A DNA stretch of 64,000 nt from Herbaspirillum sp. RTI4 (lineage in GTDB: Bacteria; Pseudomonadota; Gammaproteobacteria; Burkholderiales; Burkholderiaceae_D), in NCBI RefSeq assembly GCF_034313965.1, contig NZ_JAVIWQ010000002.1, forward strand, positions 2,666,001 to 2,730,000. The letters are read 5' to 3'. Shown one piece after another: positions 1-60,470 of this stretch. Under the pieces are notes generated by a model. The model did not search any database. It was not told the origin of the DNA and saw nothing but the letters and a program-made list of their open reading frames with translations. Position 1 is the stretch's first letter. Each line of letters starts with the position of its first letter. The position numbers were made by a program, and so were the translations under genes.

Positions 1-3000
1 GGCGTGCCATCACTTCCAAAATAACGACGCGTCAGTTTGATGTCCCCTCCCGCAGGCGGATTTTTCTTTGGATAGCCGCTATTGCGGACCTGGACATAGA
101 GTCGGCTCGGAGAAGTATTGTTAATTTGTATGCCGCCGTTGAGTTCGGCATACGTGATTCCTGGGTAAAGATGACCGTTTCCCTTCAGTTCACGTATCTT
201 GCCGCCGGCATCAAGCTGCGCACTCCAGGAACTGGCCGGTGTTGCCTCCATTCCCCGCGCCGCCAGAAATAAAGCCAGCTGATCTTGCGTGGACAAGCCG
301 CGCCCCTCTTTCATCAGTGCTGCGATACGACCCACCAGCCGACTGGCATTAGGTGCATCTGGCTTATGCTTCAATAACAGCGCATACGATAAGGCTGCAT
401 CACGCAGATCGCTGCCGTAATCGTGACTCCAGGCGCTATTGTTACGCGGCTTGTCGATGCCTTCCGCGATGGCTGTTTTAGAGCGCGCGGTATCGCCCAT
501 CAATTGCAATGCGATGCCAAGCTCGATCAGGGACAAGCCGCTAGTGGCGTTGGCACGTACCTCATACAACTGCCGCAGCGAGGCCAGAGGTGCCTGACGG
601 TCCTGCGCCAAGACATACGCGCCATGCGTGAGCCCGGAAAAACTGTTGTTGCGACCTGCCCATATCTTTTCCCAGCGCTGACCAGCGTCATTGACTGGCT
701 GCTTGATATGAAGCGAAGCGATACCGACCGGGAGTTGCTTGCTCAGAAATTCACTTGCCTTGCGATACATGGCGTCAGGAACTTCAAACCCATTGCTGCG
801 CGCATCCTGCAAGAATCGGGTTGTGTAAGCCGAAAGCCAGTATTCATAAGCGGAAGCGTCGCCCCACAAGCTGAACCCGCCATTGGGCGCTTGTCGCGTA
901 GCCAGACGTGCTATGGATTTTTCGATGATGGCAAGTCGTTGTTCTCGGCTAAAGGGTTTCAAGCCGTAACGACGGGCAGTTTGCTCATCAATAAACACAT
1001 GCGGATAACTGGTGCTGATCGTTTGTTCCGTGCAGCCATAAGGATAGACAAGTAAATCGCTGATGGCGCTTCGTATATCCAAAGGCGTGCGGTCAGTGAT
1101 CATTATTTCCGCTGATTCGGACCCGGGATACCATTCGGACGACTCCGCCGCAGTCTTAAGTTGCACGCTGGCACCTGGGTCAACGATGTGCAATGCCGTG
1201 ATATTTTGTGGAGCAGTCGGCGCCTCTACCTGCAATTTGAACTGGCGATCCACACTCAGATTCTGCCCTGCCACCTGGACTCGTATTGTGTTTAATTGCG
1301 GCGCACCGCTTGCAGTCAGACGAAAGCGCAGCGTAGTTTTCCCCTGATTTGCGAGCGACAATTCCCGCTCCGCCTCCTGCAATTGCAAGCCACGCTCACC
1401 GCTGAGCCTGATTTTCAATTGCTGATTCGAGCCTGACATATTGTGCAGATCCAGGGCCAGCGTCGCGCTATCGCCAAGGTTGACGAATCGAGGCGTCGCC
1501 AATTCCACAATTAAAGGAGCGGCGACGGTCATTTCACGTTCCGCAGAGCCGAACCGGTCGGCACTGGAAACGACTGCCATCAATCGCAGCTTGCCATTAA
1601 AGTCGGGCAAAGGGAGTGCGATATCCGCTTCGCCATTGGCGTTCAATGCAACCGGTCCAGAAAAAAGATCAAGCAGTTTGACTTTTTGCGGCAAGCCCTT
1701 GGTTGGGACCATGGTGCTGGCATCACCACCAAATTTCAGCGTCCCTTTTTTTCCTGCCATTTTTTCAATCAGCCGACCGTAAATATCATGCAGATCGGCG
1801 CCATAGCGCAATTGACCGAAAAAATAGGCATAGGGATCGGGCGAGATGAAATTAGTGATGTTCAAAATACCCGTATCCACCGCAGAAACTGTCACCATCG
1901 CATTTTTGCCGCGGGCCGCCGGAACTTTTACTTTTATCTTGACGGTCGTTTCCGGGCGTACTTTTTCAGGGGCATCGATTTGCACGTCGAATTTTCGGTC
2001 GCTACGATCGAGCGGCAAATGAATCAGTCCCAGCGCCCGAGCCGGAGTAACGCGGTCATCGCCGGTACGCAGCACCATCACATTCACATACATATCTTGC
2101 CGACGCCAGGACGGATCAAGTTTCAGGTTGATGGTTTCTTCTTCATCGCCAATGCTGAGACGTTTCATCATCAACATCTTGTCGCCCTCTATCGACACAA
2201 TGGCTTGCCCCTTGTGCGGTGAGTGGATACTCAAACGCACGGTGTCGCCATCCCGATACATGGGTTTATCGAGTTTCAATGTCACCAGATCGGGGCGATT
2301 GCCCTGTTGTTCACTTTGCTGCGCATTCCAGCCGGCGTAGAAATGGTAGCTTGCCAAGGCTGGACTGGCAGGGTCAGTGATCTCAACACGGTAGCGGCCG
2401 TATTTGACGGGCAGCTTCAGCTGAGATTTTCCGTTAGCCTCGGTATCGAATGTGAAGGTATGGATCAACTCATTGCCATCCGTATAGCCTGAGTGCCAGC
2501 CATGCTGATCGTCGAAACGCCAGTAATAATCCCTATCCTCGCGGTAAAGTCGCACCTGCAAGCCTTTGCCCGGCACAGGGTTTCCCAGGCGATTCACGCG
2601 AACAACTTCAAACTCCGTGAGCGAATCTGCATTGGCGTAAGTGCCATTGAATTTAGGCCGTACACCGATGAGTGTGTCGCCGGGCCATACGGTGCGCTCT
2701 ATGCTGCGGATAACCGGACGTCCGCCAGTCTCAAGCAAACTCAGCGTGGCATATATCCTGATCGGCGAATGCGCTGTAAGCGCGGCATCGGTGTCAATAT
2801 TTATCCTGGCATGTCCTTTACCGTCCAGAAATTGCTCTTCGATTTGTTCACGTTTTTTCAGTTTCTCGTCTTGTTCATTGCCAAAAACGAAGCCGGGAAA
2901 TTTTTTATCAAATGGATTTAAATTACGGGCGTACTCAATCACACCCAGAAGCTTATTGCCTGATGCCGGAGCGCCATACAAATAATTCCCCTGCACTTCG

Positions 3001-4661
3001 ACGTTAAAATTTTGTTTTACGTTGAGTAGGGCTTGCGGGCTGCTGAGATCCAGTTTCATCCTTTCCGGCATGAATTCTTCGACGGCGAAAGAATAAACAC
3101 TGCTGGCTTGCTTTTCAGCGGGATCATGGCGTACTTCAAGCTGCCAGGTTCCTGTTGGCGCGTCTGGGGGTAACTCAAGGCGTTGGCGATAATAGCCGAG
3201 GTAAGCTGGATCCGGCTTCCAGTTGGAAAGAAATTGTTTATTGCCATCCGGCCGCCGAAGAATCGCCTGTATTGGCTGAGAAGCAATGGCCTTGCCATCC
3301 GCGTCGCGCGCCAGCACCGACATATCGAATGCCTCACCGGGTCGATATAAATTCCGACCGCTATAAGCAAATAATCGCGTTGCTTTATACGCATTCCCGC
3401 CAATGCTGTACTCTGACAAATCAAGTGCAGGCTCCTTCAATGCCAGCATAGAAAGATGCTCACCTTTTCTGGCCAAAACGATTTTAGCTTCAGTCGGGAT
3501 AGTGGAAAAATTAGCGCGACCATCCCCATCCGTTTCACCGTGCGCAAGAACCTTTCCTTGCCGATCGACCCAGGAAATTTGTACGCCTGAAATCGCCTTG
3601 CCATTTGAAAGAGAGCTCACCAGTGCGTCGGCACTAGCGGGAAACATGCGCAATGAAAGACCGATATCGGATACATAAAAATACGTGGTCTGATATTCAG
3701 AACCGAATCTGCCTGGCTGGCTCATGATCGCGATGTAAATTCCCGGCTCTTTCAATTCCTTGACGTCTTCCACCGGCAGAAAAGTAACGCTTTGCTTATT
3801 AGTTTTTTGCTCAGTCAAAAATCGTCCCTGATAGACGCTGTCGGAAAGCTTGTGCAATGAATCGAGTTCCCATCGGCTCAGTAATCCTCGCAATGTGCGA
3901 CTACGTAGCTCAGGTTCGGAGTCATCATCGCCGCGCTCTTGATCGCCGTCTTCATTGTCTGAATCAGCCGACTGTGCAGACTGTGCTGTCTTGCGGCGCT
4001 CTGCTATGACCATATCCAGAAAACGCGGTAACTGATCCGGCCGCACGCGCATGAACTGAACATCGACTTCCGGTACGTTAACCGTGACGACAGGCAAGCC
4101 GCCATTTTGTTTGGCCGGCAAAACCATGCCATTGCTGGCGAAATAATAAGCCGGTGAAATTTCCGCCGTTAAAATTGAGAATCGACTCTCACTCGCAAGT
4201 TTTTTCATGGATGCAGACGTCAGTGCATCACTCACTTGGACGACATAACGGGTCTGCGGTTTGATGTGCGGAAAATACAAGAGACGTGGATTGTCCCCCA
4301 CCACCCAGGCACCATTGACGGCCTGACCTCCGGCAATAGAAATTGGCTCTGAGTCCTTACCCATGCCGACCTTTTCCAGTTTCTTTTCATCACCGTTCGC
4401 GCCCGCCATTTTCTCTGGCATCTGAAAAACCTGAATCAGTTTTTGATAATCGCGTTTGGGGTCTAGCGGCTGAGAAAACGTCAGGACTAAAGCGGGAGAG
4501 CCATCCAAATTTCTGTCGGCGGCATCGATCACTTCAAAGGGCGCATTAGTGTCTGTGGCACGAGAAAGATCATCTGTCTTTTTGGTACACGCAGACAAGA
4601 AAAAAAAGAGGAATGCACTGAGTATGGCTGCAACAAAGCTTGATCTGAAGATAGCACGCAT
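1..4661 (-). CDS. Alpha-2-macroglobulin family lipoprotein, 3' end beyond window
   Basis: Bacterial alpha-2-macroglobulins are large periplasmic protease traps, usually anchored to a membrane by a lipid. Reading the minus strand from ATG at 4661 gives an open frame to the window edge (about 1,553 residues; the E. coli YfhM type is about 1,650, so roughly 100 are missing). The N-terminus is a lipoprotein signal with lipobox L-S-A-C, lipidated Cys at residue 25. At residues 1210-1213 the frame reads C-T-E-Q in the context YGCTEQT, the internal thioester motif of this family, so it should be a thioester-active form. The gene lies 164 bases after clpV on the same strand and may be read from the T6SS transcript. 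Family assignment is firm; the link to T6SS is inference from position only. Confidence 0.88.
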   Translation of the reverse strand, partial: MRAIFRSSFVAAILSAFLFFFLSACTKKTDDLSRATDTNAPFEVIDAADRNLDGSPALVLTFSQPLDPKRDYQKLIQVFQMPEKMAGANGDEKKLEKVGMGKDSEPISIAGGQAVNGAWVVGDNPRLLYFPHIKPQTRYVVQVSDALTSASMKKLASESRFSILTAEISPAYYFASNGMVLPAKQNGGLPVVTVNVPEVDVQFMRVRPDQLPRFLDMVIAERRKTAQSAQSADSDNEDGDQERGDDDSEPELRSRTLRGLLSRWELDSLHKLSDSVYQGRFLTEQKTNKQSVTFLPVEDVKELKEPGIYIAIMSQPGRFGSEYQTTYFYVSDIGLSLRMFPASADALVSSLSNGKAISGVQISWVDRQGKVLAHGETDGDGRANFSTIPTEAKIVLARKGEHLSMLALKEPALDLSEYSIGGNAYKATRLFAYSGRNLYRPGEAFDMSVLARDADGKAIASQPIQAILRRPDGNKQFLSNWKPDPAYLGYYRQRLELPPDAPTGTWQLEVRHDPAEKQASSVYSFAVEEFMPERMKLDLSSPQALLNVKQNFNVEVQGNYLYGAPASGNKLLGVIEYARNLNPFDKKFPGFVFGNEQDEKLKKREQIEEQFLDGKGHARINIDTDAALTAHSPIRIYATLSLLETGGRPVIRSIERTVWPGDTLIGVRPKFNGTYANADSLTEFEVVRVNRLGNPVPGKGLQVRLYREDRDYYWRFDDQHGWHSGYTDGNELIHTFTFDTEANGKSQLKLPVKYGRYRVEITDPASPALASYHFYAGWNAQQSEQQGNRPDLVTLKLDKPMYRDGDTVRLSIHSPHKGQAIVSIEGDKMLMMKRLSIGDEEETINLKLDPSWRRQDMYVNVMVLRTGDDRVTPARALGLIHLPLDRSDRKFDVQIDAPEKVRPETTVKIKVKVPAARGKNAMVTVSAVDTGILNITNFISPDPYAYFFGQLRYGADLHDIYGRLIEKMAGKKGTLKFGGDASTMVPTKGLPQKVKLLDLFSGPVALNANGEADIALPLPDFNGKLRLMAVVSSADRFGSAEREMTVAAPLIVELATPRFVNLGDSATLALDLHNMSGSNQQLKIRLSGERGLQLQEAERELSLANQGKTTLRFRLTASGAPQLNTIRVQVAGQNLSVDRQFKLQVEAPTAPQNITALHIVDPGASVQLKTAAESSEWYPGSESAEIMITDRTPLDIRSAISDLLVYPYGCTEQTISTSYPHVFIDEQTARRYGLKPFSREQRLAIIEKSIARLATRQAPNGGFSLWGDASAYEYWLSAYTTRFLQDARSNGFEVPDAMYRKASEFLSKQLPVGIASLHIKQPVNDAGQRWEKIWAGRNNSFSGLTHGAYVLAQDRQAPLASLRQLYEVRANATSGLSLIELGIALQLMGDTARSKTAIAEGIDKPRNNSAWSHDYGSDLRDAALSYALLLKHKPDAPNASRLVGRIAALMKEGRGLSTQDQLALFLAARGMEATPASSWSAQLDAGGKIRELKGNGHLYPGITYAELNGGIQINNTSPSRLYVQVRNSGYPKKNPPAGGDIKLTRRYFGSDGT

Positions 4662-4749
4662 ACGCGACTTTCGGATAAAGGTGGAATGGGCAAATACCAA
4701 AAGAAAAAAGTGCATTGAAGTTATGAGAATTCAATGCGCTGTTGTTCAA

Positions 4750-4825: not shown

Positions 4826-7507
4826 CTATTTGATCGCGTATTTGAATTGACCAATCTTGTTTGCCGTCACTTTTATTTTGGCAACACTGCGCTCTTCTGC
4901 CATCCCTGAAAGAATCGATCCGGCCATCTCTGGCAGGAGGCTGCCATTCAAAATGTGATCCACATTGCGTGCGCCCGAATCAACTTCAATGCAGCGTGAC
5001 AACACCGCATCGACCAGCGTCTTGTCATAACTGAATTCCGTTCCGTGATTTTCGACAATACGTTTTTTAATACGCGCAAGTTTCAAATGGATAATGTCAG
5101 TCAGCACCGCATCTGAAATCGGGTAATAGGGAACCACTTTCATACGACCGAGAAATGCGGGCTTGAATACTTTCATCAGATGAGGTCGTATCGCAGCCTC
5201 AAGCACATCGATTGCAGGCAAATCCTTATCGGTCTTATTCAGACAGTTTTGCATGATCAGACCCGACGCTACGTTACTGGTGAGAATGATGAGGGTATTT
5301 CGGAAATCAATTTCTCGACCTTCCGCGTCATCAAGAACCCCCTTATCGAATACCTGAAAAAATAACTCCAGCACATCGGGATGCGCTTTTTCTACTTCAT
5401 CCAACAGCACTACGCTGTAGGGTTGACGCCGTACCGCTTCGGTCAGCACGCCGCCTTCGCCATAACCCACATAGCCTGGTGGAGAACCTTTGAGTCCCGA
5501 TACGCTGTGCGCCTCCTGATATTCACTCATATTGATGGTGATCAGTTTGCGTTCGCCGCCATACAGCGCATCTGCCAGCGCGAGTGCGGTCTCGGTTTTG
5601 CCAACGCCCGATGGACCGGCAAAAAGGAAAACCCCTTGCGGCTTGTTCGGATCATCCAGATTGGCACGTGCTGTGCGTATGCGTTGCGATATGGCTTCAA
5701 TCGCATGGGGCTGACCAAGAACACGTTCCCCGATCAAGGCGTTAAGATTCATCACCGTCTTGATATCATCTCTCACCATTTTCCCCAACGGGATCCCGGT
5801 CCAGGCGGCAACGATGGCAGCCACCACTGCACCATCGACCTGAACCGGCACTAAAGGTGATTCCCCTTGCAAGGTCCTGAGTTCCTCCAGATATTTGCGC
5901 AGTGTTTTAGCAAGTTTGCTATCGGTGGACGACCGCTTGCCAGTTGAAATATCTGTAGCGGCACGCTGTTCCAGATCAGTACGGGCGCTCTGTATTTTTA
6001 CGTTAAGTGCCTGTTCTTGTTCCCAGCGGAGACGATATTGAGCAAGCTCCAAAGCTAAATCAGTGAGCAAGCTCTGCAATTCCGACAGGCGCGCTCCATG
6101 TTGATTTCCAACACATTCCTCACGCTCCAACGAATGTAATTCGGCCTTCAATCGCGCTTCTTTTTTGATCAAATCGTCGATCAAAGCAGGCGTCGCGCTC
6201 TGCCCTAGCGCGACCCTTGCGCAGGCAGTATCAAGAATGCTGATGGCTTTATCTGGTAGCTGACGACCGCTGATATAACGATGAGATAACCGTACCGCCT
6301 CGGTAATCGCATCGTCGAAAATACGAACATGAAAATGCTTTTCCATCAGAGAAGCCATACCGCGCAACATAGCGCATGCCAACTCTTCGCTGGGCTCTTC
6401 CACTTTAACGACCTGAAATCGACGTGCTAGCGCAGCATCTTTTTCAAAATATTTTTTGTATTCACTCCATGTCGTCGCGGCAATCGTACGAAGTTCGCCC
6501 CGTGCGAGCGCCGGCTTGAGTAAATTCGCCGCATCGTTTTGACCCGCCTGCCCTCCGGCACCGATCATGGTGTGCGCCTCATCGATAAAAAGGATAATGG
6601 GTGTCGGATTTTTTCTTACTTCATCGATGATACTTTTAAGACGATTCTCGAATTCGCCCTTGACGCTGGCACCAGCCTGCAGCAATCCCATGTCCAGTGA
6701 ATAGAGTTCAACTCCCTGCAATACCTCAGGCACATCCTTCTCAATAATACGTAACGCCAGACCTTCTGCCACCGCCGTTTTCCCAACGCCCGGCTCGCCG
6801 GTCAGTATCGGATTGTTTTGACGGCGGCGCATCAGGATATCCATAACCTGCCGGATTTCATTATCACGTCCGATGACCGGATCGATTTTTCCATCTCTGG
6901 CGCGCTGTGTCAGATGGGTGCTAAATTTATCCAGCGCGACTGTCTTCGACAAACCCGCTTGCGAACTGGCATCGTGGCAATTGCGCTCAGCCGTTCCATC
7001 AGACTCAATCGCATTTTGTTGTGAAAAACTATTTTCTTGCGAATCAATACACCATCGTTCGGCGTCGTGTTTAATCACGTTCTGATCGAATTTTTTAAAT
7101 TGACTTGATGCTCGATAAGCCAGTTGCGCAAGATCTGGTTTTGACAACAAAGCCAACAACAAATGGCTGCTGCGAATCGGCGCAGAGGCGTGCTCCAGCG
7201 AAGCAATTAACCACGCATGCTCAAACAGCGTCGGAAGATGTGGAGAAAATACCGGGGTACGGGTATTGCCGGTTTTAAAGCGCGCAATTTCACTCCGAAG
7301 ATCGTTTTCCAGTACCGAAATAGGGATGCCGCAATGTTGGGAAATCAGCGCGAAATCACATTGCGGCTGTTCAAGCAAAGCGAGAAATAGATGTTCTAAG
7401 TCGACTTCATAGTGTCCGCTTGCTACACAGATATTGGCGGCTCGCTCTGCAGCGACACGAATAGTGTCGTTCAGTTTATTAATCAATGTTTTGAGATTGT
7501 TGTACAT
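4826..7507 (-). CDS. tssH: T6SS sheath-disassembly ATPase ClpV/TssH
   Basis: ClpV is the AAA+ ATPase that unfolds and recycles the contracted TssB/TssC sheath in the cytoplasm. The 893-residue product has a Clp N-domain (about 1-150). The first AAA module has Walker A GEPGVGKT at 237-244 and Walker B ending in FIDEAH near 312. A coiled-coil middle region spans about 440-550, and the second module has Walker A GPSGVGKT at 631-638. This is the normal length and order for TssH. It is the last core gene of the minus-strand arm, 274 bases after the DUF3304-like lipoprotein gene. No strong Shine-Dalgarno sequence precedes the ATG, but the N-terminus fits the family. Confidence 0.96.
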   Translation of the reverse strand: MYNNLKTLINKLNDTIRVAAERAANICVASGHYEVDLEHLFLALLEQPQCDFALISQHCGIPISVLENDLRSEIARFKTGNTRTPVFSPHLPTLFEHAWLIASLEHASAPIRSSHLLLALLSKPDLAQLAYRASSQFKKFDQNVIKHDAERWCIDSQENSFSQQNAIESDGTAERNCHDASSQAGLSKTVALDKFSTHLTQRARDGKIDPVIGRDNEIRQVMDILMRRRQNNPILTGEPGVGKTAVAEGLALRIIEKDVPEVLQGVELYSLDMGLLQAGASVKGEFENRLKSIIDEVRKNPTPIILFIDEAHTMIGAGGQAGQNDAANLLKPALARGELRTIAATTWSEYKKYFEKDAALARRFQVVKVEEPSEELACAMLRGMASLMEKHFHVRIFDDAITEAVRLSHRYISGRQLPDKAISILDTACARVALGQSATPALIDDLIKKEARLKAELHSLEREECVGNQHGARLSELQSLLTDLALELAQYRLRWEQEQALNVKIQSARTDLEQRAATDISTGKRSSTDSKLAKTLRKYLEELRTLQGESPLVPVQVDGAVVAAIVAAWTGIPLGKMVRDDIKTVMNLNALIGERVLGQPHAIEAISQRIRTARANLDDPNKPQGVFLFAGPSGVGKTETALALADALYGGERKLITINMSEYQEAHSVSGLKGSPPGYVGYGEGGVLTEAVRRQPYSVVLLDEVEKAHPDVLELFFQVFDKGVLDDAEGREIDFRNTLIILTSNVASGLIMQNCLNKTDKDLPAIDVLEAAIRPHLMKVFKPAFLGRMKVVPYYPISDAVLTDIIHLKLARIKKRIVENHGTEFSYDKTLVDAVLSRCIEVDSGARNVDHILNGSLLPEMAGSILSGMAEERSVAKIKVTANKIGQFKYAIK

Positions 7508-8300: not shown

Positions 8301-9383
8301 TTAAATGGCATGGATTTCATAACGGACATCCGTCCGGTCCGCTTGCGCAGGAGTACTTACGAGAAAAGTGTCCCAACCAAGCCGCCCTCCCTCTCCTTCA
8401 GAAGAGAGATGAATTCCCTGGACTTCCTTCGCACTAAGAATCAGTCGGATTTCATATTCCAGAATGCAGGCACTAAACATGGTGATGATCTTTTTTAGAC
8501 TCCGCGCGGCCGATCCCCCTGGTAAAAAACTGATGAATTGTTTGCGCATAAGTGGGCCTATATGCATGCGTAAACGTAAATTCCGTTGCCACACTCTGGC
8601 ACCAACCATCGCCACATGACCAAGTGTCGCGTTAGTAATGCCCAGTGATGTTTGCTGATCGTCAGGGACCATGTACCAATGACCGACAAATTGCTCAACT
8701 TCAATAGTGGCGTCGAAATATTCGCGAAGCACCTGCTGCAAATACGCTGCCGAAGGTGGGCGATGTCTTATCGCCGTAGAAAAATACGCGATCGATTCCT
8801 CGGATAAATCACCATCCTCTTCGCGAAACCGCTCTCTTAATGCATTCGAACCCATCCCCGACAACGACAACAACAACGCTAAAAAGCTGTCCTTGCCATC
8901 AACCCGATATTGAAACTCCAGACGATATTTTCGCCATGCCTTAAAAAAAAGAGTCACTCCCCTAGATGAAAATACATCCAGAAATGCACGCGGTCCGGCA
9001 TCTTTTTCCAACAATTGATGCCGAGAAATTCGCTCTGTGTAATGCGCCGGCAATGTTCCATTGCTGCCCAAAAACCCGATGAATGGCGTTGTCAGTGAAA
9101 TACTTTCAAGGTTTCTTTTTTGTATTAAAAGAGAAACAGATTCGGCAGAGTTAGCCGGCAATTCCGGGCTTATTGCTATCGATTCAATTTCACTGGCAGG
9201 AAAGCTAAGAGAAATAGAATTTTGAAATTTAATGCAATCAGCAATGGCTTCGTCATTGACCACACCATTTCGTCTGAGCCATAGTTCAAGCAACATGACT
9301 GCCTGAAAAAACTGAAAGCGGTGCGGTGCTTCCAGAAACCGCTGGATTACACTAGATGCGAATCGCCGCTGCGTGGTAAACAT
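8301..9383 (-). CDS. tssG: T6SS baseplate protein TssG (ImpH/VasB)
   Basis: TssG forms the cytoplasmic baseplate wedge with TssF, TssE and TssK. The 360-residue product starts with the family signature around RRFASSVIQRFLEAPHRF and FFQAVMLLELWLRR, and has the usual length. Its start lies inside the last 37 bases of tssF, indicating translational coupling within the tssE-F-G block. The next gene, for a lipoprotein, follows after 66 bases. Confidence 0.95.
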   Translation of the reverse strand: MFTTQRRFASSVIQRFLEAPHRFQFFQAVMLLELWLRRNGVVNDEAIADCIKFQNSISLSFPASEIESIAISPELPANSAESVSLLIQKRNLESISLTTPFIGFLGSNGTLPAHYTERISRHQLLEKDAGPRAFLDVFSSRGVTLFFKAWRKYRLEFQYRVDGKDSFLALLLSLSGMGSNALRERFREEDGDLSEESIAYFSTAIRHRPPSAAYLQQVLREYFDATIEVEQFVGHWYMVPDDQQTSLGITNATLGHVAMVGARVWQRNLRLRMHIGPLMRKQFISFLPGGSAARSLKKIITMFSACILEYEIRLILSAKEVQGIHLSSEGEGGRLGWDTFLVSTPAQADRTDVRYEIHAI

Positions 9384-11191
9384 CGCACTATTTCCTCCCC
9401 TGTCCTTTTTGAGAAAATAACTAACTGGGTAAAGCTATTCGCATGGGCATATAGCCCAAAAAAACGATCGAGAATGTGTGTGAACACATGGATGCCACTT
9501 CCGATAAATCCTTCTTCATCCAGAGTGAGCCGAATTTCAATACCCCTTACCAGTGAAGCAAATGGATTTCCTCGCAGCCATGCGCTCGTCGACTTATGGT
9601 CGATACTGACCAATCCAGCCACCTGCCGATGAGAGGTTGCAGAACGTGGCAGGTCATAGAGAGAAAGGACTTCTTTGAGCGCATCCAATCCGCCTCTTGC
9701 CAGGGATAAATGATTGAGAGATAAATGTGAAATCAGACGCCAATGTGCTCCCCGTCCGCGCGTGAATCGGTACGGTTCGCTAGGTTTTCTTAAAAATCGG
9801 ATGACGCCAAATTTTTCTTCGCCAGAAAGTGATAAATCCCCTCCCTCTAATCCATACGCCAAATAACTGGGCAAATCCCGATTAGTGCTGGTGACCTCAA
9901 TACTGAGCGTACATTCACCGATTTCAGCAGGATTAAAGTCAATATCGACAATCGATATTTCAGTTTCATAACCAGGGCTTTTTTTTGCAACGGTGTCATC
10001 ACGCCGCATCGCCCAATAATGACCATTACTCGCCGGAGTTTCACCATGTCGCAACGAGTAATAAGGTCGGAACTGACGAAACGATTCGCCCTCTGGGTTT
10101 TTCAGAACTTGCGTAACCGAATCGATTGAATACACCTCGAAGGCTGGAGCATTATTACCGTCTACGATGACCGAATAATTTGCAGTGGCATGCGTCAAAA
10201 GGACCGGACTTGCCACTTTCGGAAACAAATTGATCACGGGCGAACATCCGAGCAGAAAATTGTTAGCAGATAAGGTGCTGAGCATGCGAGCGACATTGGA
10301 ATCAGACCGCAAGCCGGTCAGAGTGAGGTGAAGGGTGAACTTTTTTTCATCGACAGGAAGCACCCTACAAATGGCCTCTAAATCAATATCAAAAAAATTA
10401 AATTTTTCGGGATAAGAAAAATATTCAGTCAAAAGCCGATAGGCGGGATGCGACCTTGCAGGAAAATCAATCAAGGATTCATTTTCATTAAATCCGACCG
10501 CTTCTATTGGCAACGCAGGCAGCCCAACCCAACGCCGACTATCGGCCGCCTCAACATAAGCGCATACGGTATTCATGAATAACGCATCCCTGAGCCCAGC
10601 ACAAAATGAAGGTTCACCGTCAATGAAAATGCGAACCTTCTTCACCCCCAGCTGAGACAATGCAACGGATACGTTGGCCGTTTCTAAGCTAATACTGATT
10701 CCAGAGCTCGTATCCGGAGGAAGAACAACCGTATCGGGCGGCATGGGAATCGCATCGAACCTCGCATGCGAAACTAATAGCGGCGTGACCGCAACGTCAA
10801 ACGAAGTCCTGAATTTGCAAGCAACTCCATCGACGACGTGGGATTTCAACTGAGTCCCGCGTGGAATGATCGTTGTCTGTGTCACTTTCGATAAATCGTC
10901 ACTTCCTGGTATTCGGACAATCGAACAAGATGGAAATGGGCGAAGATAGTGCGGATACAAAACCTCGAATAATGCCTCGGTAAACTCAGGATAATCGTCA
11001 TCAAGTCGTTTTGAAGTGCGGGCATTAATCAAGGCAAACGACTGAATCATCCTCTCGATATGGGGATCTTCTGATACCTCGCCGGCCATGAGTAATCGGC
11101 CTGCAATTTTGGGATACCGCTCAGCGAACTTACGAGAATATCGCCTTAGGAAGCCGAGCTCTCGTTCATAGTATGGGAGTAGTTCGTCCAA
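9347..11191 (-). CDS. tssF: T6SS baseplate protein TssF (ImpG/VasA)
   Basis: TssF is the main structural subunit of the T6SS baseplate wedge. I place the start at TTG 11191, two bases after the tssE stop, giving an N-terminus that reads (M)DELLPYYERELGFLRRY, the near-invariant start of this family, and a 614-residue protein. A GGA element lies nine bases upstream. The frame is open back to an ATG at 11269, but that would add 26 atypical residues overlapping tssE. The 3' end overlaps tssG. The tight spacing suggests that translation of TssF depends on TssE translation. Confidence 0.94.
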   Translation of the reverse strand: MDELLPYYERELGFLRRYSRKFAERYPKIAGRLLMAGEVSEDPHIERMIQSFALINARTSKRLDDDYPEFTEALFEVLYPHYLRPFPSCSIVRIPGSDDLSKVTQTTIIPRGTQLKSHVVDGVACKFRTSFDVAVTPLLVSHARFDAIPMPPDTVVLPPDTSSGISISLETANVSVALSQLGVKKVRIFIDGEPSFCAGLRDALFMNTVCAYVEAADSRRWVGLPALPIEAVGFNENESLIDFPARSHPAYRLLTEYFSYPEKFNFFDIDLEAICRVLPVDEKKFTLHLTLTGLRSDSNVARMLSTLSANNFLLGCSPVINLFPKVASPVLLTHATANYSVIVDGNNAPAFEVYSIDSVTQVLKNPEGESFRQFRPYYSLRHGETPASNGHYWAMRRDDTVAKKSPGYETEISIVDIDFNPAEIGECTLSIEVTSTNRDLPSYLAYGLEGGDLSLSGEEKFGVIRFLRKPSEPYRFTRGRGAHWRLISHLSLNHLSLARGGLDALKEVLSLYDLPRSATSHRQVAGLVSIDHKSTSAWLRGNPFASLVRGIEIRLTLDEEGFIGSGIHVFTHILDRFFGLYAHANSFTQLVIFSKRTGEEIVRCLPRSGDSHLV

Positions 11192-11192
11192 T

Positions 11193-11684
11193 TTATGCTT
11201 CCGTGCGTGAGTTGCGGCGCATTCTGCCGATGGAATACTGCAATGATGAGGGTTGTAGCACTGCGTCAAAACTCACCAGCTCTTGCGCCGGATGAACGAC
11301 CAACCTCGCTGATATGACAAAATTAAGACGATTAATAGATCCATCTCGCAACTCCAGAGAAGCATTAACATTCTGTAAACGCGGCTCGTGACGGGCAATC
11401 CCTTTTTCCAAAGATTCACAAATAAGTCGGCGATCCCTCACGCTGGCCAAGCTTAGACCTGCAAAATCACTCAAGCCGTAAGTCAATATGGATTGGCAAC
11501 ACTCGTCAAATTTCCCTAATAGATCCGCTTCAATTACCGTGCGGGTATTGAGCATGGCTTCAAGATCACGAGCAACCGCATCCTTTAGCAAATCCATGGA
11601 AAATATGGAAATGGTTTCTGAGGCATTCGATACAGAATGTTGGCTCATCAAACGATCGAACAACCCTGGAGTAAAGCCTTTCAT
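11193..11684 (-). CDS. tssE: T6SS baseplate protein TssE (gp25-like)
   Basis: TssE is the gp25-like baseplate component that starts sheath assembly. The preferred start, ATG 11684, gives 163 residues beginning MKGFTPGLFDRLM, matching the family. An upstream ATG at 11741 lies inside a hairpin and adds 19 residues that look non-coding. The C-terminal half has the gp25 fold region (RDRRLICESLEKGIARHEPR and the strand around NFVISARLVV). An insertion sequence now separates it from hcp, so its transcription may have changed. No good Shine-Dalgarno sequence is visible. Confidence 0.9.
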   Translation of the reverse strand: MKGFTPGLFDRLMSQHSVSNASETISIFSMDLLKDAVARDLEAMLNTRTVIEADLLGKFDECCQSILTYGLSDFAGLSLASVRDRRLICESLEKGIARHEPRLQNVNASLELRDGSINRLNFVISARLVVHPAQELVSFDAVLQPSSLQYSIGRMRRNSRTEA

Positions 11685-11731
11685 CAACAACCAATTCAAT
11701 AAAAGTGGAAAAATATTAAAGCTCTCGACAA

Positions 11732-11765
11732 GACAAGCCACAACGATTTACTGCTGTGGCTTGTC
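11732..11765 (-). other. Hairpin between hcp and tssE
   Basis: A perfect 11-bp inverted repeat (GACAAGCCACA/TGTGGCTTGTC, 12-base loop) lies between the original hcp stop and tssE. On the minus strand it has no following T-run. It could be an RNA processing or stability element that lets hcp be made in excess of downstream genes. It is now cut off from hcp by the insertion sequence. Confidence 0.55.
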
Positions 11766-11782
11766 CTATTCAAAGCGAATTA

Positions 11783-11790
11783 AATAATTT
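11783..11790. repeat. Target site duplication, left copy
   Basis: AATAATTT abuts the left end of the insertion sequence and is repeated exactly at 13111-13118. Eight bases is the duplication length typical of ISL3-family elements. Confidence 0.95.
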
Positions 11791-13110
11791 GGTTCTTCGG
11801 ACATTTCTGTGGGTAAGGGGTACGCTATGGCGCAGGTTTAGCCAGGGAGTAGCGCAATGGAAGGCAAGGAGCTGTACCAGAATTTGTTGGGTTTGAATGA
11901 ACCGTGGACGGTGGAGCGAGTTGATCTGGACATGGCGAAGCTGCATGTTGACGTGCACGTCGCGCACCCTGCCGGTACCCGGTTTGCGTGTCCTGACTGC
12001 GCGGCGTCGTGCACGGTCTATGACCATTTGGCGGAGCGTGTTTGGCGGCATCTGGACAGTTGCCAATTTCTGACGTACTTGCATGCCCGGCCACCGCGGA
12101 TTTCGTGTCCCGAACACGGTGTGCGCCAAGTTGGGTTGCCGTGGGCGGAGCAAGGCAGTCGGTTCACGCATCTGTTTGAAGTGTTGGCCATCGAGTTGCT
12201 GCAGGCCGCCAACGTCAAACGCGCAGCGCAGATCCTGCGCATTAGCTGGGATCAAGCGTGGCACCTGATGGAACGCGCGGTATTGCGCGGGCGTGCGGCC
12301 AAAGGCGCCGCCGTGCCAAGACAGATTGGTATCGACGAGAAGGCGATTGCGAAAGGCCATCAGTACATGACGCTGGTGTGCGACCGGCAAGCAGCGACGG
12401 TGGAGTATGTCGGGGAAGGTCGTACCCAGGAAAGCCTGGCGGCGTACTTTGCCGCCTATAGCAGGGAGCAACTTGCTGGGATCGAGGCGATCAGCCTGGA
12501 CATGTGGCCGGCGTACATCAGCGGCTGCAAAGCGCACGTTCCGCAGGCGCAGGAGAAGATGGTATTTGATCGCTTCCACATCATGCAGCATGTCGGCAAC
12601 GGTGTCGATCGCGTGCGCAAGGAGGAACACAAAACACTGCTGCAACAGGGCGACGAAACACTCAAGCGCAGCAAGTACCTGTGGCTCTACAGCGCCGAGA
12701 ACATGCCTGCAGCTGCACGCGCCAGATTTGATCAGATCAAGCACGGCAACTTGAAAACGGCCCGCGCCTGGGCGCTGAAGGAATCGTTGCGGGGGATGTG
12801 GGCTTACCAAAGCCTCGGCTGGGCCAAACGGTTCTGGAAGCGCTGGTATTTCTGGGCCACGCACAGCCGCCTGCCGCCCATGATTGAAAAGGCCAAACTG
12901 GTTGCCCGGCACTTGCCCAACATCTTGACCTATTTTAATCATCGCATTACCAATGCCGTCGCAGAAGGATTGAATTCGAAGATTGCAACTGTACAAAAAC
13001 GCGCCTGTGGCTTCCGAAATCGTGACAACTTCAAGATCGCCATTTACTTCCATTGTGGTGGCCTTGATCTTTATCCGGCATCAGTGACCCACAGGAAAGT
13101 CTGTTGAACC
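11791..13110 (+). mobile_element. ISL3-family insertion sequence, complete, 1,320 bp
   Basis: The element is bounded by imperfect terminal inverted repeats of about 24 bases (19 of 24 match). The left repeat is at 11791-11814 and starts GGTTCTTCGG; the right is at 13087-13110 and starts GGTTCAACAG on the minus strand. It carries one transposase gene and is flanked by a perfect 8-bp duplication. It inserted exactly at the stop codon of hcp, opposite to the direction of T6SS transcription. Intact ends and duplication suggest a fairly recent and possibly still mobile element. Confidence 0.95.
11857..13107 (+). CDS. ISL3-family transposase
   Basis: The 416-residue DDE transposase mobilises the surrounding element. 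The N-terminal zinc-binding part has Cys pairs (CPDC and a later C-P-E-H). The catalytic domain shows the acidic residues in IGIDEKAIAKGH, ISLDMWPAYISG and NAVAEGLNSKIATVQ, as in the IS204/IS1001/IS1096/IS1165 group. The conserved end ACGFRNRDNFKIAIYFHCG is complete. The gene stops three bases before the right end of the element and shows no frameshift, so it should be functional. Confidence 0.95.
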   Translation: MEGKELYQNLLGLNEPWTVERVDLDMAKLHVDVHVAHPAGTRFACPDCAASCTVYDHLAERVWRHLDSCQFLTYLHARPPRISCPEHGVRQVGLPWAEQGSRFTHLFEVLAIELLQAANVKRAAQILRISWDQAWHLMERAVLRGRAAKGAAVPRQIGIDEKAIAKGHQYMTLVCDRQAATVEYVGEGRTQESLAAYFAAYSREQLAGIEAISLDMWPAYISGCKAHVPQAQEKMVFDRFHIMQHVGNGVDRVRKEEHKTLLQQGDETLKRSKYLWLYSAENMPAAARARFDQIKHGNLKTARAWALKESLRGMWAYQSLGWAKRFWKRWYFWATHSRLPPMIEKAKLVARHLPNILTYFNHRITNAVAEGLNSKIATVQKRACGFRNRDNFKIAIYFHCGGLDLYPASVTHRKVC

Positions 13111-13599
13111 AATAATTTTATTAGACGCCAGATCCCAGCCGCCTGAGGTGTTTCCACCGGAACCACCTCCCACTTTTTGCTGCGTGTATTTCCACTTGAC
13201 CCTGGAATATTTCAGGCTGACACTTTCATTCAAAATATCGCCCTCGGCTACGTAGGGCGTGACATTAGATATCAGGATATTTTCCAATTCAATTTCAAAA
13301 TATTTGATCCGTGAACCATTGCCATCAGCCCTCAGAAATTCAAATTTAGCTTTTGGAATTGTTTTCCCGGAGGAGCAATTTTGCAGTAAGAGCGGTGTTG
13401 CCAGATCAGCTTGTTTTAGCAGGACGATATCCCTGTGCTCACAACGCTCGGCTGTGTGGCCGCCACCGGTCGAAGAGGACGTTGATTTTGGTTGCAGCAC
13501 CTCCCACTGAACTGACTTGCACTCAATCCAATCTTTATGAATGTCATCAGTGGACTCCCCTTTAATTCCTTCAATTTGCAGATAAACATCAATTGCCAT
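13081..13599 (-). CDS. tssD: T6SS tube protein Hcp/TssD with IS-derived tail
   Basis: Hcp forms the hexameric rings of the inner tube fired by the T6SS. The 172-residue frame begins MAIDVYLQIEGIKGES after an AGGAA ribosome-binding site, and most of it is a normal Hcp. Native coding ends at GGWDLASNKII, where the insertion sequence starts. Removing the element and one target copy gives ATT ATT TAA, so the ancestral protein had 163 residues. The present frame reads nine residues (GSTDFPVGH) into the element before TGA. Hcp termini are packed at ring interfaces, so the tail might affect stacking or export, but this cannot be judged from sequence. The gene is 24 bases after tssC. Confidence 0.95.
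   Translation of the reverse strand: MAIDVYLQIEGIKGESTDDIHKDWIECKSVQWEVLQPKSTSSSTGGGHTAERCEHRDIVLLKQADLATPLLLQNCSSGKTIPKAKFEFLRADGNGSRIKYFEIELENILISNVTPYVAEGDILNESVSLKYSRVKWKYTQQKVGGGSGGNTSGGWDLASNKIIGSTDFPVGH
13111..13118. repeat. Target site duplication, right copy
   Basis: AATAATTT directly follows the right end of the insertion sequence. It is identical to 11783-11790 and overlaps the last codons of the ancestral hcp. Confidence 0.95.
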
Positions 13600-13623: not shown

Positions 13624-15111
13624 TTAAGATTTGCTTGCTTTGGGTAACTCGGCAACCAAACGTAGGGAAACGGATAACTCATCAAGTTGGAAGTGCGGGC
13701 GAAGAAATGACACAGCGCGATATACGCCTGGTCGCCCCGGGACTTCCGAAACCTGAACAGAAGCTTCGCGCAAAGGGAATTGCGCTTTGGCCTCCTGGCT
13801 GGCGTTGTCATCTAACAGAACATATTGGGTCAGCCAGCGATTAAGGAAATCTTCAACATTAGAAGCCGCAGCAAAGCTACCGATTTTGTCGCGCATCATC
13901 GATTTCATGTAATGCGCAATACGCGAGACAGCAAAAATATACTGAAGCTGCGCGGACAAAACCGCGTTTGCATTTGCTGAATCAGTATTGTATTTTTTAG
14001 CTTTTTGGGTTGACTGAGCGCCAAAAAATGCTGCGTAGTCGGTATTCTTACAATGCACCAGAGAGATGAAGCCTAGATCACTCAATTCTTTTTCTCTGCG
14101 ATCTGTAATGGCGATTTCAGTAGGGCATTTAAGCGCTACCTCTCCTTCATCGGTCTTGAAAGTGTGGGTAGGTAAATTTTCAACCAGACCACCGCCCTCC
14201 ACACCTCGGATCGCGGCACACCAGCCATAATCTTCAAAAGCAGCGGTCAGTTTTGTACCGAAAGAATAGGCGGCGTTGCACCATAAATATTTGGAATGAT
14301 CTGTGCCGTCGACATCCTCAACGAAGTTGAATCCTTCGACGGTCATACCATCATTAGGGTGAAACGGAAGCCTCCCCAGAAATCGTGGCAGGGTCAATCC
14401 CACATAACGGGAATCCTCGGATTCGCGGAATGACTTCCACTTTGCATATTCGACAGTTTCAAAGATTTTGGCTAAATCACGCGGTTTTCCCAATTCATCG
14501 AAACGTTCCAATCCAAAAAGTTCAGGGGATGCCGCACTAATGAAAGGAGCATGCGCCGCCGCGGCTATATGCGACATCTGATCGATGAAATACATGTCTT
14601 CCGGCTGGCGGGTAATGTCAAAATCACCGAGCAATGATCCAAATGGAGATCCGCCAAAAGTACCAAACTCTTCTTCGTACACTTTTTTGAAAATCGCACT
14701 CTGATCAAAATCTAAGGCCGATTGAAAATCTTTAACGAGTTCTTTTTTGGATACATTCAATACCTTTATTTTTATATTCCCACTTGTGGTGGAATTAAAA
14801 ACCAGGTAGTGCAAACCAGTCCAGCTACTTTCAATTTTTTGAAATTCTGGGGCATGCAAAATGGCGCTGACCTGATCTGAGAGCAAGCGATCAAGTTCTG
14901 CAATACGAGCATCAATTGTCGCGGCAAGATTCTCGGAAACAACCACCGTCCCTTGCATCACCTGATTCACTAATTCCGAAATAAGGTCTTTTGCGCGACT
15001 ATGTTCCGCGCTGGATTTGGCAATTTTGCTATGCTCAACAATCTGATCGAGCAAACCGGTTTCCATTGTCGACTGCTGCATGGTTTCCGAAATGTTCTGG
15101 GCCAATGACAT
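13624..15111 (-). CDS. tssC: T6SS contractile sheath large subunit TssC (VipB)
   Basis: TssC forms, with TssB, the contractile sheath around the Hcp tube. The start at ATG 15111 follows an AAGGAG site at good spacing, one base after the tssB stop, and gives 495 residues beginning MSLAQNISETMQQ. The frame is open further upstream but only into tssB. Family landmarks include SSWTGLHYLVFN, the long VipB core, FAVSRIAHYMKSMMRDKIGSF and a C-terminal strand near RPHFQLDELSVSLRLVAELP. Length is normal. Confidence 0.97.
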   Translation of the reverse strand: MSLAQNISETMQQSTMETGLLDQIVEHSKIAKSSAEHSRAKDLISELVNQVMQGTVVVSENLAATIDARIAELDRLLSDQVSAILHAPEFQKIESSWTGLHYLVFNSTTSGNIKIKVLNVSKKELVKDFQSALDFDQSAIFKKVYEEEFGTFGGSPFGSLLGDFDITRQPEDMYFIDQMSHIAAAAHAPFISAASPELFGLERFDELGKPRDLAKIFETVEYAKWKSFRESEDSRYVGLTLPRFLGRLPFHPNDGMTVEGFNFVEDVDGTDHSKYLWCNAAYSFGTKLTAAFEDYGWCAAIRGVEGGGLVENLPTHTFKTDEGEVALKCPTEIAITDRREKELSDLGFISLVHCKNTDYAAFFGAQSTQKAKKYNTDSANANAVLSAQLQYIFAVSRIAHYMKSMMRDKIGSFAAASNVEDFLNRWLTQYVLLDDNASQEAKAQFPLREASVQVSEVPGRPGVYRAVSFLRPHFQLDELSVSLRLVAELPKASKS

Positions 15112-15112
15112 G

Positions 15113-15622
15113 TCAGACTCCTTGATTGTTGGTTTGCTGTTTAAGAATTGCCAGCTGCTCAGTATTTTTGAGTACCTCACTCAAAAGATCTTCCAACTTT
15201 TCATTTCCCGCCAGTTTGTTACGTAAATCCGCTAGCTTGGTACGTGCCTCAAGCAATTTCTTTAGTGGTTCAACCTGCTGCACAATTGCTTCAGGACGAA
15301 AATCCTCAAACGATTTGAACTTGAGCTCCACCCCAAACTCACCGCCCTCCTCTGTCAAATGATTCTCGACACGAAAGACGGCTTTGGGTTCGATACCCTT
15401 CAGCACTTCATCAAAATTGTCATTGTCGACATTGATAAATTTTCTTTCCTTGAGCTTGCCTTGTGATACTTCCGACTTCCCGCCAAAGTCACCCAGCACG
15501 CCCATAACAAAAGGCAATTCCTTTTTTTCTATGGCATCGCCGATTTCTACGTCATATGTCATTTGCACTCTCGGCGGCCTGACTTTTTGAAGACGTTTTT
15601 GCGTACTTTCTCTTTTCGACAT
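15113..15622 (-). CDS. tssB: T6SS contractile sheath small subunit TssB (VipA)
   Basis: TssB is the small sheath subunit and carries the ClpV-recognised face of the sheath. The start at ATG 15622 follows GGAG six bases upstream and gives 169 residues (MSKRESTQKRLQKVRPPRV); an ATG 24 bases further up lacks such a site. The core shows ELPFVMGVLGDFGGKSEV and FINVDNDNFDEVLKGIEPK, typical of VipA. It is translationally coupled to tssC. Confidence 0.96.
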   Translation of the reverse strand: MSKRESTQKRLQKVRPPRVQMTYDVEIGDAIEKKELPFVMGVLGDFGGKSEVSQGKLKERKFINVDNDNFDEVLKGIEPKAVFRVENHLTEEGGEFGVELKFKSFEDFRPEAIVQQVEPLKKLLEARTKLADLRNKLAGNEKLEDLLSEVLKNTEQLAILKQQTNNQGV

Positions 15623-48863: not shown

Positions 48864-51694
48864 TCACGCAAGATCGAATCGCAGTAAATTGACCGGCAGC
48901 GTGGCAAAGACCTCGCTCAGAGGCAATCGATCCCCTCCCGCCATCGGTAATCCACTCTGAGTCAGTACGCTACGCCAGCTCCCTGCCCCGTGCAGTGCGG
49001 CTGGCAAGAGCAAAGCGCTGTTGCCCCACTGCGTCGGCGGAATCAGCGGCATGACGTCGTCGGCCGACATGGGTCCCTCCAGCACCAACCCAGCCGAAAA
49101 ACGCGAAACCACCACCAGCGCCGCCGCCTCGCCCTGCCGTCGAATGAAGCCCAGCGCATGCCGCGCCATCGGCCCCACCACGGTCAGCGGCAGGTATTCT
49201 CCCTGCGCAAACAAGGACGGCATCTGCTGCCGATAAAGCAAGGCCGCCGCAATTAATTGCTGCTTGCAGAAACCCTCGCGCCAGCCGCGTAAAGTCATCA
49301 CTTGCCCCTGTCGCTCCTGCAAGCTGCGCTGCCGCGCCGCAAAATCGACTGGCCGCCGGTTGTCGGGATCGACCAGACTGACATCCCACCACTCCGTACC
49401 CTGATATAAATCCGGTACACCCGGCGAACACAGTCGCAACAAGGTCTGAGACAAACTATTGAGCGCGCCCGCAGATGCAATTTCCTCCACGAAGGCACTC
49501 AGTCCGGCCAGAAATACATTCTCCGGATGCACTTCTAAAATCGCTTCCAGAAAATGTTGACAGGCCGCTTCATACGCCAGATCGGGCTGCATCCAGGACG
49601 ATTGCTGCTTGGCTTCGCGCAAGGCTTTCTGCTGCCATTGCGCCACCCGCTCGCATAGTGCAGCAACCCCGGCGTGATCGCTGGCGTCCAGACCGATGGG
49701 CCATGCGCCGATCAAGGTCTGATACAGCATCATTTCATCGGTAGCGGAAATCCCGTCCACATCGCCAAAGGGACGCGTATGCACCGCATTCAACAGCCGC
49801 CAGCACTGCCATTGCGCATGCCAGCTCTCGGGAATCTGACTCAATACCGCCAGCCGCATGCGGGCATCTTCGCCGCGCTTGTGGTCATGCGTCGCGGTAG
49901 TCAGCATGGTCTGCGGCAGCCGCATCTGACGTTGGCTGGCCTGCGCATGGAAAGCCTCGACCGACAGCGCCAGTTGCGCCGGATCGGAGCCGACTTCATT
50001 GCGCGACAGCAAACGCCCATACCGATAAAACACCGTGTCTTCGGAAGACTTCGCTGCCAGCGGCGGTGTCAGTTGCTGAAAACGTGTCATCGCCCGCCAG
50101 CGCAAATCGGCGCTATGCTTGTCCTCGATATCGCTCGGTGCCGCCCCCCCAGCCATTGCTCCAGCAAGGCCAGCACCGGCTGATCCACCGGCAAAATGCG
50201 CGCAGCCGCCCGCTTGACTGCCGCGTCCATCACGCACTGATCGACCGCATCGCGGCCATGGACGTCCGCATAAGTGCGGTATAGCGGAAACGCCACCAGC
50301 AACTCGGTCAAGGTGCGATGAATCGCCATGAGCGAGGTATCCGCCGTCGCACCATCGGCCAGCGCCACAGCGTGCAGCGCCCGCACCAGTGCATTGAATT
50401 CACTGGCGAAATTGCTGCTCAGAAAACGACGTCGCACGTCCTCCACTCCAGTGGAACAAGACATCCCGCCACCGGTTTCCTGCCAGATCGCATTGAGTTC
50501 TGCCTCACCGGCGGCATCGTGCAGCAAAGCGCTGACCTGATCCATGAATTCGTAACCGGTCGTACCGTCAAGCTGCCAGCCGGGTCGCAACTCCTCCTCC
50601 GGCCCCAGAATTTTTTCCGCAATCAGATAAGGTGCGCGCAGCTCTGTGTGCGATTCTTTTGCACCTGCCGGTTGCGGCATCCGGGCGACAAGTTCCGCAC
50701 GCAATTTCAGGCAATAGGCAGCAGGATCGGCCAGCCCGTCGATATGATCGATGCGCACGCCATCAATCCAGCCCGCCGCCACCAGCCGGAACAGAACCGC
50801 ATGCATCGCCTCGAAAGCACCCTCCTCCTCGATACGCACGCCTGCCAGTTCGCTGACTTCGAAAAAACGTCGCCAGTTGATCTCATCCCCGGCATTGATC
50901 CAATGAGAAAGACAGTAATGTTGACGCGCCAGCAAATCCCGCAGCGCAGATGCTCCGTCAAGCAGCGCAGGAGAAAACGCGCTCAGGGCAGTTTCTATGG
51001 CGGCGAGTCCCGCTGGATTAGCGCTCAGCTCGCGCAATAAGGCGAAGGCACTGTCGGCCAGTACTTGCCGCTCTTCAATGCCGATACCCTCCACAATATC
51101 GAGCGACGCCAGCAAGGCCGGAGACAAGATCGACGACCCGGCCTGTTCGAGAACGTCGGCATAGTTATCGGGCGCGAGCGGAAAGCGTTGCTCGCCATAA
51201 TCGAAAAAAAACTGTCCCAACCCGGCATCGAACACCAGCCGTATTTCTCCCGACTGCAAGACGTCCTCGTCACTGCGTCCCAGAAACGGCAGCAGCACCT
51301 TGCCGCGCAAGATGGTGTCGGGCGAATGCCAGTCGATATCGAACCAGCGCGCATAACGACTGGACGCGCCCCAGCGCAATACATCCTGCCACCACGGATT
51401 ATGTCGTCCCACGCCCAGATGATTCGGCACGATATCGACAATCAGGCCCATGCCTCTGGCGTGCAGCCGCTCCACCAGTCGCTGCAAACCCGGCTCCCCG
51501 CCCAGCTCGGGATTGATGCAGCTCGGATCGACAATGTTGTAACCGTGCCGCGACCCCGGTTGCGCGCTCAGTATCGGCGACACATAAAAATGGCTGATAC
51601 CCAGCGCGGCGAAATAATCGACCTGCGCGGCGGCATGGTCGAACGTGAATTCCTTATGCAATTGCAATCGTGCCGTCGCACGCAGCGTACTCAT
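48864..51694 (-). pseudogene. treY: Maltooligosyl trehalose synthase TreY, frameshifted
   Basis: TreY converts the reducing end of maltooligosaccharides to a trehalose unit, which TreZ then releases. The frame from ATG 51694 codes for the GH13 catalytic part (YVSPILSAQPGSRHGY, IVDIVPNHLG, VRIDHIDGLADP) and ends early at 50087. The C-terminal half continues in another frame (RFQQLTPPLAAKSSEDTVFYR) to 48864. The frames meet at a run of seven C (50144-50150 on the plus strand). One extra base there would restore a 943-residue protein of normal TreY length. The start overlaps the malQ stop (ATGA). A real mutation, slippage during expression, or a sequencing error are all possible. Confidence 0.9.
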
Positions 51695-55772: not shown

Positions 55773-55992
55773 AATCTCCTCCTTGGGAGAGAGTGAGCCG
55801 TCGCCGCAAAAAATTAAATGCGGCTAGGGGGAAATGCATGTACGCCGAGAAAGTCTCTGAACAAGCGTAAAAGTCGACACTAAGGCCGACTGGAAAAGGG
55901 GCATAAACAATGCCGTTGCGATGGAGTGCGGCAAACCTCGCCGCCGGGTGAGTGCGCCGCGTAATCGCTTAATCAAGTGTCCCAGGTATTGT

Positions 55993-60467: not shown

Positions 60468-60470
60468 GGA

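What the first reader, a model, noticed from the sequence alone, without database searches (positions are those of the whole stretch)
11783..13118. Insertion sequence lands exactly on the hcp stop codon and extends Hcp
The ISL3-type element has a perfect 8-bp duplication and sits where the hcp codons ATT ATT TAA stood. Hcp now reads nine residues (GSTDFPVGH) into the IS terminal repeat, so the tube protein survives with a new tail. The element lies antisense inside the operon, between hcp and tssEFG-clpV, so baseplate genes may have lost or changed their promoter. This may be a natural off-switch or a tuning event.
Basis: seen in the sequence. Interest (0 to 1): 0.8.

Follow-up and report, generated by a model that had tools for sequence, protein, structure and literature searches.

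The report
IS insertion lengthens T6SS tube protein
A mobile element recently landed on the stop codon of the only tube-protein gene found for a bacterial secretion machine, adding nine residues and moving away an RNA hairpin of a kind known elsewhere to protect that gene's message; the event is ordinary but makes a useful natural experiment.

Summary
An ISL3-family element (11791-13110, 1320 bp, imperfect terminal repeats, one transposase) sits between two AATAATTT copies at the 3' end of hcp. Hcp has 172 residues; the 80 best named relatives' loci have 163 or 164, and 9 close loci of congeners have 163. The nine extra residues (GSTDFPVGH) come from the right IS end. The genome holds four identical copies; none was found in 33 other genomes of the genus, so the insertion looks recent. 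One hcp was found; the tss genes in the window are open, and five long VgrG matches lie in the genome.

A better mechanism: the IS separates hcp from a strong stem-loop that lay about 10 nt behind its native stop and is now 1.3 kb away. Comparable stem-loops recur in many relatives' gaps, and in Yersinia and E. coli such a loop supports hcp mRNA. I expect less stable hcp mRNA, uncertain polarity on tssEFG-clpV, and a probably tolerated disordered tail. None of this is measured. Stop-codon targeting was tested and is not established.

The parts
11791..13110 (+). ISL3-family insertion sequence, 1320 bp
   Evidence: terminal repeats, 8-bp duplication, four identical copies in the genome
11857..13107 (+). 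transposase gene, 416 aa
   Evidence: PF01610 3.7e-72, PF13542, PF14690
11783..11790 (.). target-site duplication AATAATTT, left copy
13111..13118 (.). target-site duplication AATAATTT, right copy
13081..13599 (-). hcp (tssD), now 172 aa; the last nine codons (13084-13110) are IS sequence, new stop TGA 13081-13083
   Evidence: PF05638 4.7e-41; translation; IS-end frames
11780..11782 (-). native hcp stop codon (TAA), now cut off beyond the IS
   Evidence: sequence, codon walk
11728..11769 (-). strong stem-loop (11-bp perfect stem 11732-11765, 17 pairs in the fold) that followed hcp before the insertion
   Evidence: fold -36.7 kcal/mol for the 95-nt gap, z -5.45 and -6.1 in two runs
11193..11684 (-). 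tssE, start by likeness to relatives
   Evidence: PF04965 1.4e-17; starts in relatives
9347..11269 (-). tssF
   Evidence: PF05947 1.7e-180
8301..9383 (-). tssG
   Evidence: PF06996 5.6e-90
4826..7507 (-). clpV (tssH)
   Evidence: Clp/AAA domains; position in the tss run
13624..15180 (-). tssC
   Evidence: PF05943, PF18945
15113..15646 (-). tssB
   Evidence: PF05591 6.6e-61
11770..13053 (-). 427-codon open frame antisense to tnp, starting 27 nt after the new hcp stop and ending 10 nt beyond the native one
   Evidence: explained by the tnp codon usage

Best explanation
A recently acquired ISL3-family element transposed into the AT-rich 3' end of the only hcp gene found in this genome. Shown: Hcp gains nine residues from the IS terminal repeat, and the native stop and the stem-loop that followed it by about 10 nt are now separated from the hcp frame by the IS. 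Inferred: hcp mRNA loses its 3' protective hairpin and becomes less stable, so less Hcp is made. Transcripts for tssEFG-clpV must now cross 1.3 kb antisense to tnp, so those genes are expressed the same or less. The disordered tail is probably tolerated. The net effect is a T6SS that is more likely dampened than dead. The stop-codon position is best read as an AT-rich site that spared the gene, not as a designed switch.
For: Insertion anatomy. Recency: four copies 100% identical, not found in 33 of 33 other genomes of the genus (up to 11 candidate stretches scored per genome), GC 57.6% against 53.8% for the window. Tail unique in what was examined: 72 loci of 163 aa and 8 of 164 among the 80 best of 218 named loci; 9 of 9 close congener loci of 163 aa; among the 120 proteins listed of 2863 found, 113 have 163 aa, 5 have 164, the own one 172 and P0096 197, and only the own one bears the tail. 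Single hcp: one match in the own genome. VgrG family: five long matches and one short. Frames of tssA, B, C, E, F, G, H, J, K, L, M open in the window. Hairpin: own gap z -5.45 and -6.1. In relatives, 31 of 42 hcp-tssE gaps of 40 nt or more have z below -2 or a perfect stem of 8 bp or more, and 9 of 9 congener gaps have perfect stems of 8-13 bp. Control: of 31 windows of 95 nt across the antisense IS the lowest z is -1.79, so the IS brings no comparable hairpin. Function of such a loop elsewhere: PMC12503267 (passages) reports a stem loop between hcp4 and tssE4 whose mutation lowered only the hcp4 transcript; PMC13141884 (passages) reports that deleting the hairpin region between hcp3 and vgrG3 lowered hcp3 mRNA and Hcp3.
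Against: No RNA, protein or secretion data exist here. The hairpin is still transcribed if RNA polymerase crosses the IS, so a long protected transcript is possible. 11 of 42 relative gaps of 40 nt or more lack a strong hairpin by my criteria, and 30 of the 72 gaps found are shorter than 40 nt, so the hairpin is not universal. The z-scores use mononucleotide shuffles, many gaps are GC-rich, the loci are related to each other, and 3 of the 9 congener gaps have z between -1.7 and -1.9. In EHEC the region is also a predicted terminator. The C-terminal residues of EvpC matter for secretion, and an N-terminal His tag abolished it (PMC2944823, passages), so a tail could also harm the tube.
Confidence: 0.6

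Rival explanations
1. Neutral insertion: the nine-residue tail is harmless, read-through across the IS is complete, and the T6SS works as before.
For: The tss frames in the window are open. A 427-codon frame antisense to tnp begins 27 nt after the new hcp stop behind an AAGG, and ends beside the native hcp stop, so a read-through transcript could stay translated and escape Rho. C-terminal FLAG and His tags on Hcp have been used as baits (PMC8262886, passages). The end of the tail is predicted unstructured (pLDDT below 50 for residues 168-172).
Against: The antisense frame is explained by tnp codon usage (385 of 1000 resamplings and 69 of 1000 shuffles reach it). Moving the hairpin away should matter if it works as in Yersinia and E. 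coli.
Confidence: 0.25
2. Off-switch: the insertion silences the T6SS through polarity on tssEFG-clpV and/or a tail that blocks ring stacking, and is a first step of decay or a reversible switch.
For: 1.3 kb of antisense IS lies between hcp and four core genes. A C-rich, G-poor stretch occurs near the IS left end (C 0.40, G 0.13 in 78 nt). EvpC without its last three residues was seriously impaired in secretion (PMC2944823, passages).
Against: No second broken tss gene in the window; five long VgrG matches kept. Terminator-like sites are at chance level: 4 in 3 kb on both strands, of which one (12910-12892) lies antisense in the IS, against 3.0 in shuffles. Reversibility is not shown.
Confidence: 0.12
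3. The element prefers stop codons as targets.
For: 2 of 4 own copies (hcp, and a small unassigned gene at L004) and 3 of 9 independent copies of a 45%-identical element in genome G540 lie within one codon of the stop of an open frame of 80 codons or more. Against AT-matched positions P is 0.005 and 0.008 (the observed counts were entered by hand).
Against: 0 of 8 sites of other ISL3 relatives. If only positions that spare open frames are allowed, P is 0.03 (own, post hoc) and 0.35 (G540). Of the five stop-proximal frames only hcp and L165 match Pfam, so some may not be genes.
Confidence: 0.08

Closest known systems
ISL3 family insertion sequences
   Same: 1320 bp, imperfect terminal repeats, 8-bp direct repeats, one DDE transposase with PF01610; family ranges from PMC5395568 passages
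   Different: No full-length close relative in the searched genomes: the best long match in the family group is 71% over 1193 bp at a contig end; short right-end pieces reach 90% (two candidates scored per genome)
hcp 3' stem-loop (Yersinia pseudotuberculosis T6SS4; EHEC h3R region I)
   Same: A strong stem-loop just behind hcp in the ancestral order, before tssE as in Yersinia
   Different: Here the IS has separated the loop from hcp by 1.3 kb; function not tested in this lineage
Specialised Hcp with C-terminal extension (Hcp-ET)
   Same: Hcp core plus extra C-terminal residues
   Different: Nine residues of IS origin; the specialised class is set at more than 60 extra residues (PMC8262886, passages)

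Membership tests
ISL3 family | ISL3 DDE transposase | tested here: met
   PF01610 3.7e-72 over positions 1-240 of 240
ISL3 family | 8-bp direct repeats | tested here: met
   perfect in 4 of 4 own copies
ISL3 family | imperfect inverted repeats of 15-39 bp | tested here: met
   19 of 24 positions; range from PMC5395568
ISL3 family | size 1186-1553 bp | tested here: met
   1320 bp; range from PMC5395568
Hcp (TssD) tube protein | T6SS_HCP domain | tested here: met
   PF05638 4.7e-41, residues 6-138
Hcp (TssD) tube protein | length of 163-164 residues in this group | tested here: not met
   172 aa; the excess is the IS end
Specialised Hcp-ET | C-terminal extension over 60 residues | tested here: not met
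   nine residues
hcp 3' stem-loop | stable stem-loop between hcp and tssE | tested here: met
   z -5.45 and -6.1
hcp 3' stem-loop | directly behind the hcp stop codon | tested here: not met
   1.3 kb from the new stop after the insertion
hcp 3' stem-loop | loss lowers hcp mRNA | not testable with these tools
   needs RNA work; reported elsewhere

The most novel reading that the evidence does not exclude
The insertion is a natural experiment that separates hcp from its recurring 3' protective hairpin: it lowers the tube-to-baseplate transcript ratio while leaving a functional 172-residue Hcp with an IS-derived tail, so the T6SS is dampened, not destroyed.
Probability: 0.35. Interest if true: 0.45.

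Novelty: new member of a known kind. Interest (0 to 1): 0.3.

Why it matters
If the reading holds, one strain offers a natural test of two points: how much the stem-loop behind hcp sets the Hcp level, which rests on mutants in Yersinia and E. coli, and whether the tube tolerates a short C-terminal tail on every subunit, since no second hcp was found. As an IS event it is ordinary.

Tried and rejected
Promoter loss or gain: no minus-strand promoter-like site above shuffles in the hcp-tssE gap or pointing out of the IS left end. New terminator in the antisense IS: one site, chance level; no strongly folded window. Antisense frame as a selected polarity shield: 408 stop-free codons inside tnp were reached by 0 of 1000 sequences with host codon usage (eight genes of the window), but by 385 of 1000 with tnp usage and 69 of 1000 own-codon shuffles; in relatives it is 390 codons in G540 and 439 in G504, but 95-181 in seven other copies, so it is not conserved. 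Stop-codon targeting: suggestive, not established. Hcp-ET: rejected by length. Sister strains: nothing closer than 86% Hcp identity among the proteins listed, apart from the Collimonas-type hits of up to 88% over 94% of the query, so the empty site in the same species could not be seen.

Literature. Searches (2 papers; 1; 12 listed of 47) gave no report of a stop-codon preference of ISL3. I saw passages of PMC2516522, PMC4133298 and PMC5395568: PMC5395568 says the ISL3 target preference is not known and suggests AT-rich regions; PMC4133298 and PMC2516522 describe elements of other families whose transposase stop codon lies in the target site, a precedent of another kind. One search (20 listed of 33) showed, by titles and abstract starts only, no paper on an IS-extended Hcp. 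Of (20 listed of 147; 10; 12 listed of 22) I saw passages of PMC8262886, PMC2944823, PMC12503267 and PMC13141884 only.

Full report
What is there. The window lies in a 3.99-Mb genome (contig C2, 2666001-2730000). The minus strand carries tssB, tssC, hcp, tssE, tssF, tssG, a small unassigned gene and clpV; the plus strand carries tssJ, tssK, tssL, tssM, tagF, an OmpA-like gene and tssA. These frames are open. The genome search found a single hcp match, but five long matches to the VgrG family model PF05954 plus one short one.

The insertion. The element at 11791-13110 has ends that match at 19 of 24 positions, 8-bp duplications AATAATTT and one transposase with three ISL3 Pfam domains. It meets the four ISL3 features tested (ranges from passages of PMC5395568). 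Four copies in the genome are identical over 1320 bp. None was found in the other 33 genomes of the genus. In the family group 17 of 392 genomes gave a match, own included, mostly short, with two candidates scored per genome; the best other long match was 71% over 1193 bp at a contig end. The element is thus probably a recent arrival.

The tail. Hcp reads ..SNKII and then nine residues from the right IS end. One search found 218 named loci that encode a relative and kept the best 80; in these Hcp has 163 residues in 72 and 164 in 8. In 9 of 9 loci from 8 congener genomes, those with 74-77% identity, it has 163; seven weaker Hcp-like matches in congeners were not examined. In the protein search the own entry is the only one of 172 aa and the only one with the tail among the 120 listed of 2863; 113 have 163, 5 have 164 and one, P0096, has 197. 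A monomer model from 25 sequences has moderate confidence (mean pLDDT 73.7) and leaves the end of the tail unstructured (below 50 for residues 168-172). Whether the tail is tolerated is open. C-terminal tags on Hcp have been used as baits (PMC8262886, passages). [quoted passage not shown]

The hairpin. The native 95-nt space between hcp and tssE holds a stem-loop (11728-11769); the gap folds at -36.7 kcal/mol, z -5.45 and -6.1 in two runs with mononucleotide shuffles. Of 90 hcp loci examined (10 from unnamed relatives, 80 named), 72 show a tssE start within about 300 nt; 42 of these have a gap of 40 nt or more; 24 of 42 have z below -2, 26 of 42 a perfect stem of at least 8 bp, 31 of 42 one or the other, and 11 neither. 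The 9 congener gaps all have perfect stems of 8-13 bp, 3 of them with z only between -1.7 and -1.9. The loci are related and many gaps are GC-rich, so these are not independent trials. Windows across the antisense IS serve as a control: lowest z -1.79 of 31. In Y. pseudotuberculosis T6SS4 a stem loop between hcp4 and tssE4, when mutated, lowered the hcp4 transcript only, and the authors read it as a 3' protective loop, not a terminator (PMC12503267, passages). In EHEC deletion of the hairpin region between hcp3 and vgrG3 lowered hcp3 mRNA and protein; there the region is also a predicted terminator (PMC13141884, passages). Here the IS lies between the hcp stop and that loop.

Downstream genes. 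I find no promoter toward tssE in the gap or at the IS end, so tssEFG-clpV most likely depend on transcripts that cross the IS. Two features point in opposite directions: a C-rich, G-poor stretch near the exit and a 427-codon open frame through the IS in the direction of the operon, which could keep ribosomes on the RNA. The open frame follows from the transposase codon usage and is long in G540 and G504 but short in L141, L149, L150, L154, L174, L175 and L177. Transcription of tnp runs against hcp, with a 27-nt overlap of the two genes' ends.

Stop-codon landing. Two of four own copies lie at stop codons, three of nine independent copies of a 45%-identical element in G540 within one codon of one, and 0 of 8 other sites. 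Against AT-matched positions this is unusual (P 0.005 and 0.008; 0.003 for the own copies against the whole window). Against AT-matched positions that spare open frames it is not convincing (P 0.03 and 0.35). The observed counts were entered by hand. Left out: L172, which is the same target as L171; L166 and L167, which lie side by side without a duplication; nine loci whose ends could not be fixed (L140, L142, L148, L153, L160, L161, L176, L178, L179); the contig-end copies L115 and L159; and the partial matches L116-L137 and L143-L146, which were not tried. L139, L152, L156 and L158 are the same copies as L165, L162, L171 and L169. I conclude that an AT-rich target and survival of harmless insertions are enough to explain the position.

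Verdict. The element is a new but ordinary ISL3 insertion. The interest lies in the natural separation of hcp from its hairpin in a strain where only one hcp was found.

Noticed in passing
window 11728-11769 and hcp-tssE gaps of L006-L013, L025, L035-L114: A strong stem-loop behind hcp recurs in this T6SS type (31 of 42 gaps of 40 nt or more); some are followed by T runs, others not.
   Followed up: partly
L004 1501-2820: A second copy of the IS lies at the stop codon of a small gene that looks like a lipoprotein by eye (no Pfam match) and adds a tail from the same IS end in another frame.
   Followed up: yes
L001 1501-2820: A third copy interrupts a gene with a PglZ domain, a domain known from phage-defence loci (recalled).
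   Followed up: partly
L003 1501-2820: The fourth copy lies 22 bp upstream of the start of a PCu(A)C copper chaperone gene.
   Followed up: no
own genome: One hcp match but five long VgrG-family matches and one short one.
   Followed up: no
window 3-4715: A 1571-aa open frame that looks by eye like an alpha-2-macroglobulin-type protein (not searched) follows clpV.
   Followed up: no
window 48864-63989: A run of large genes that look by eye like glycogen and trehalose metabolism enzymes (not searched).
   Followed up: no
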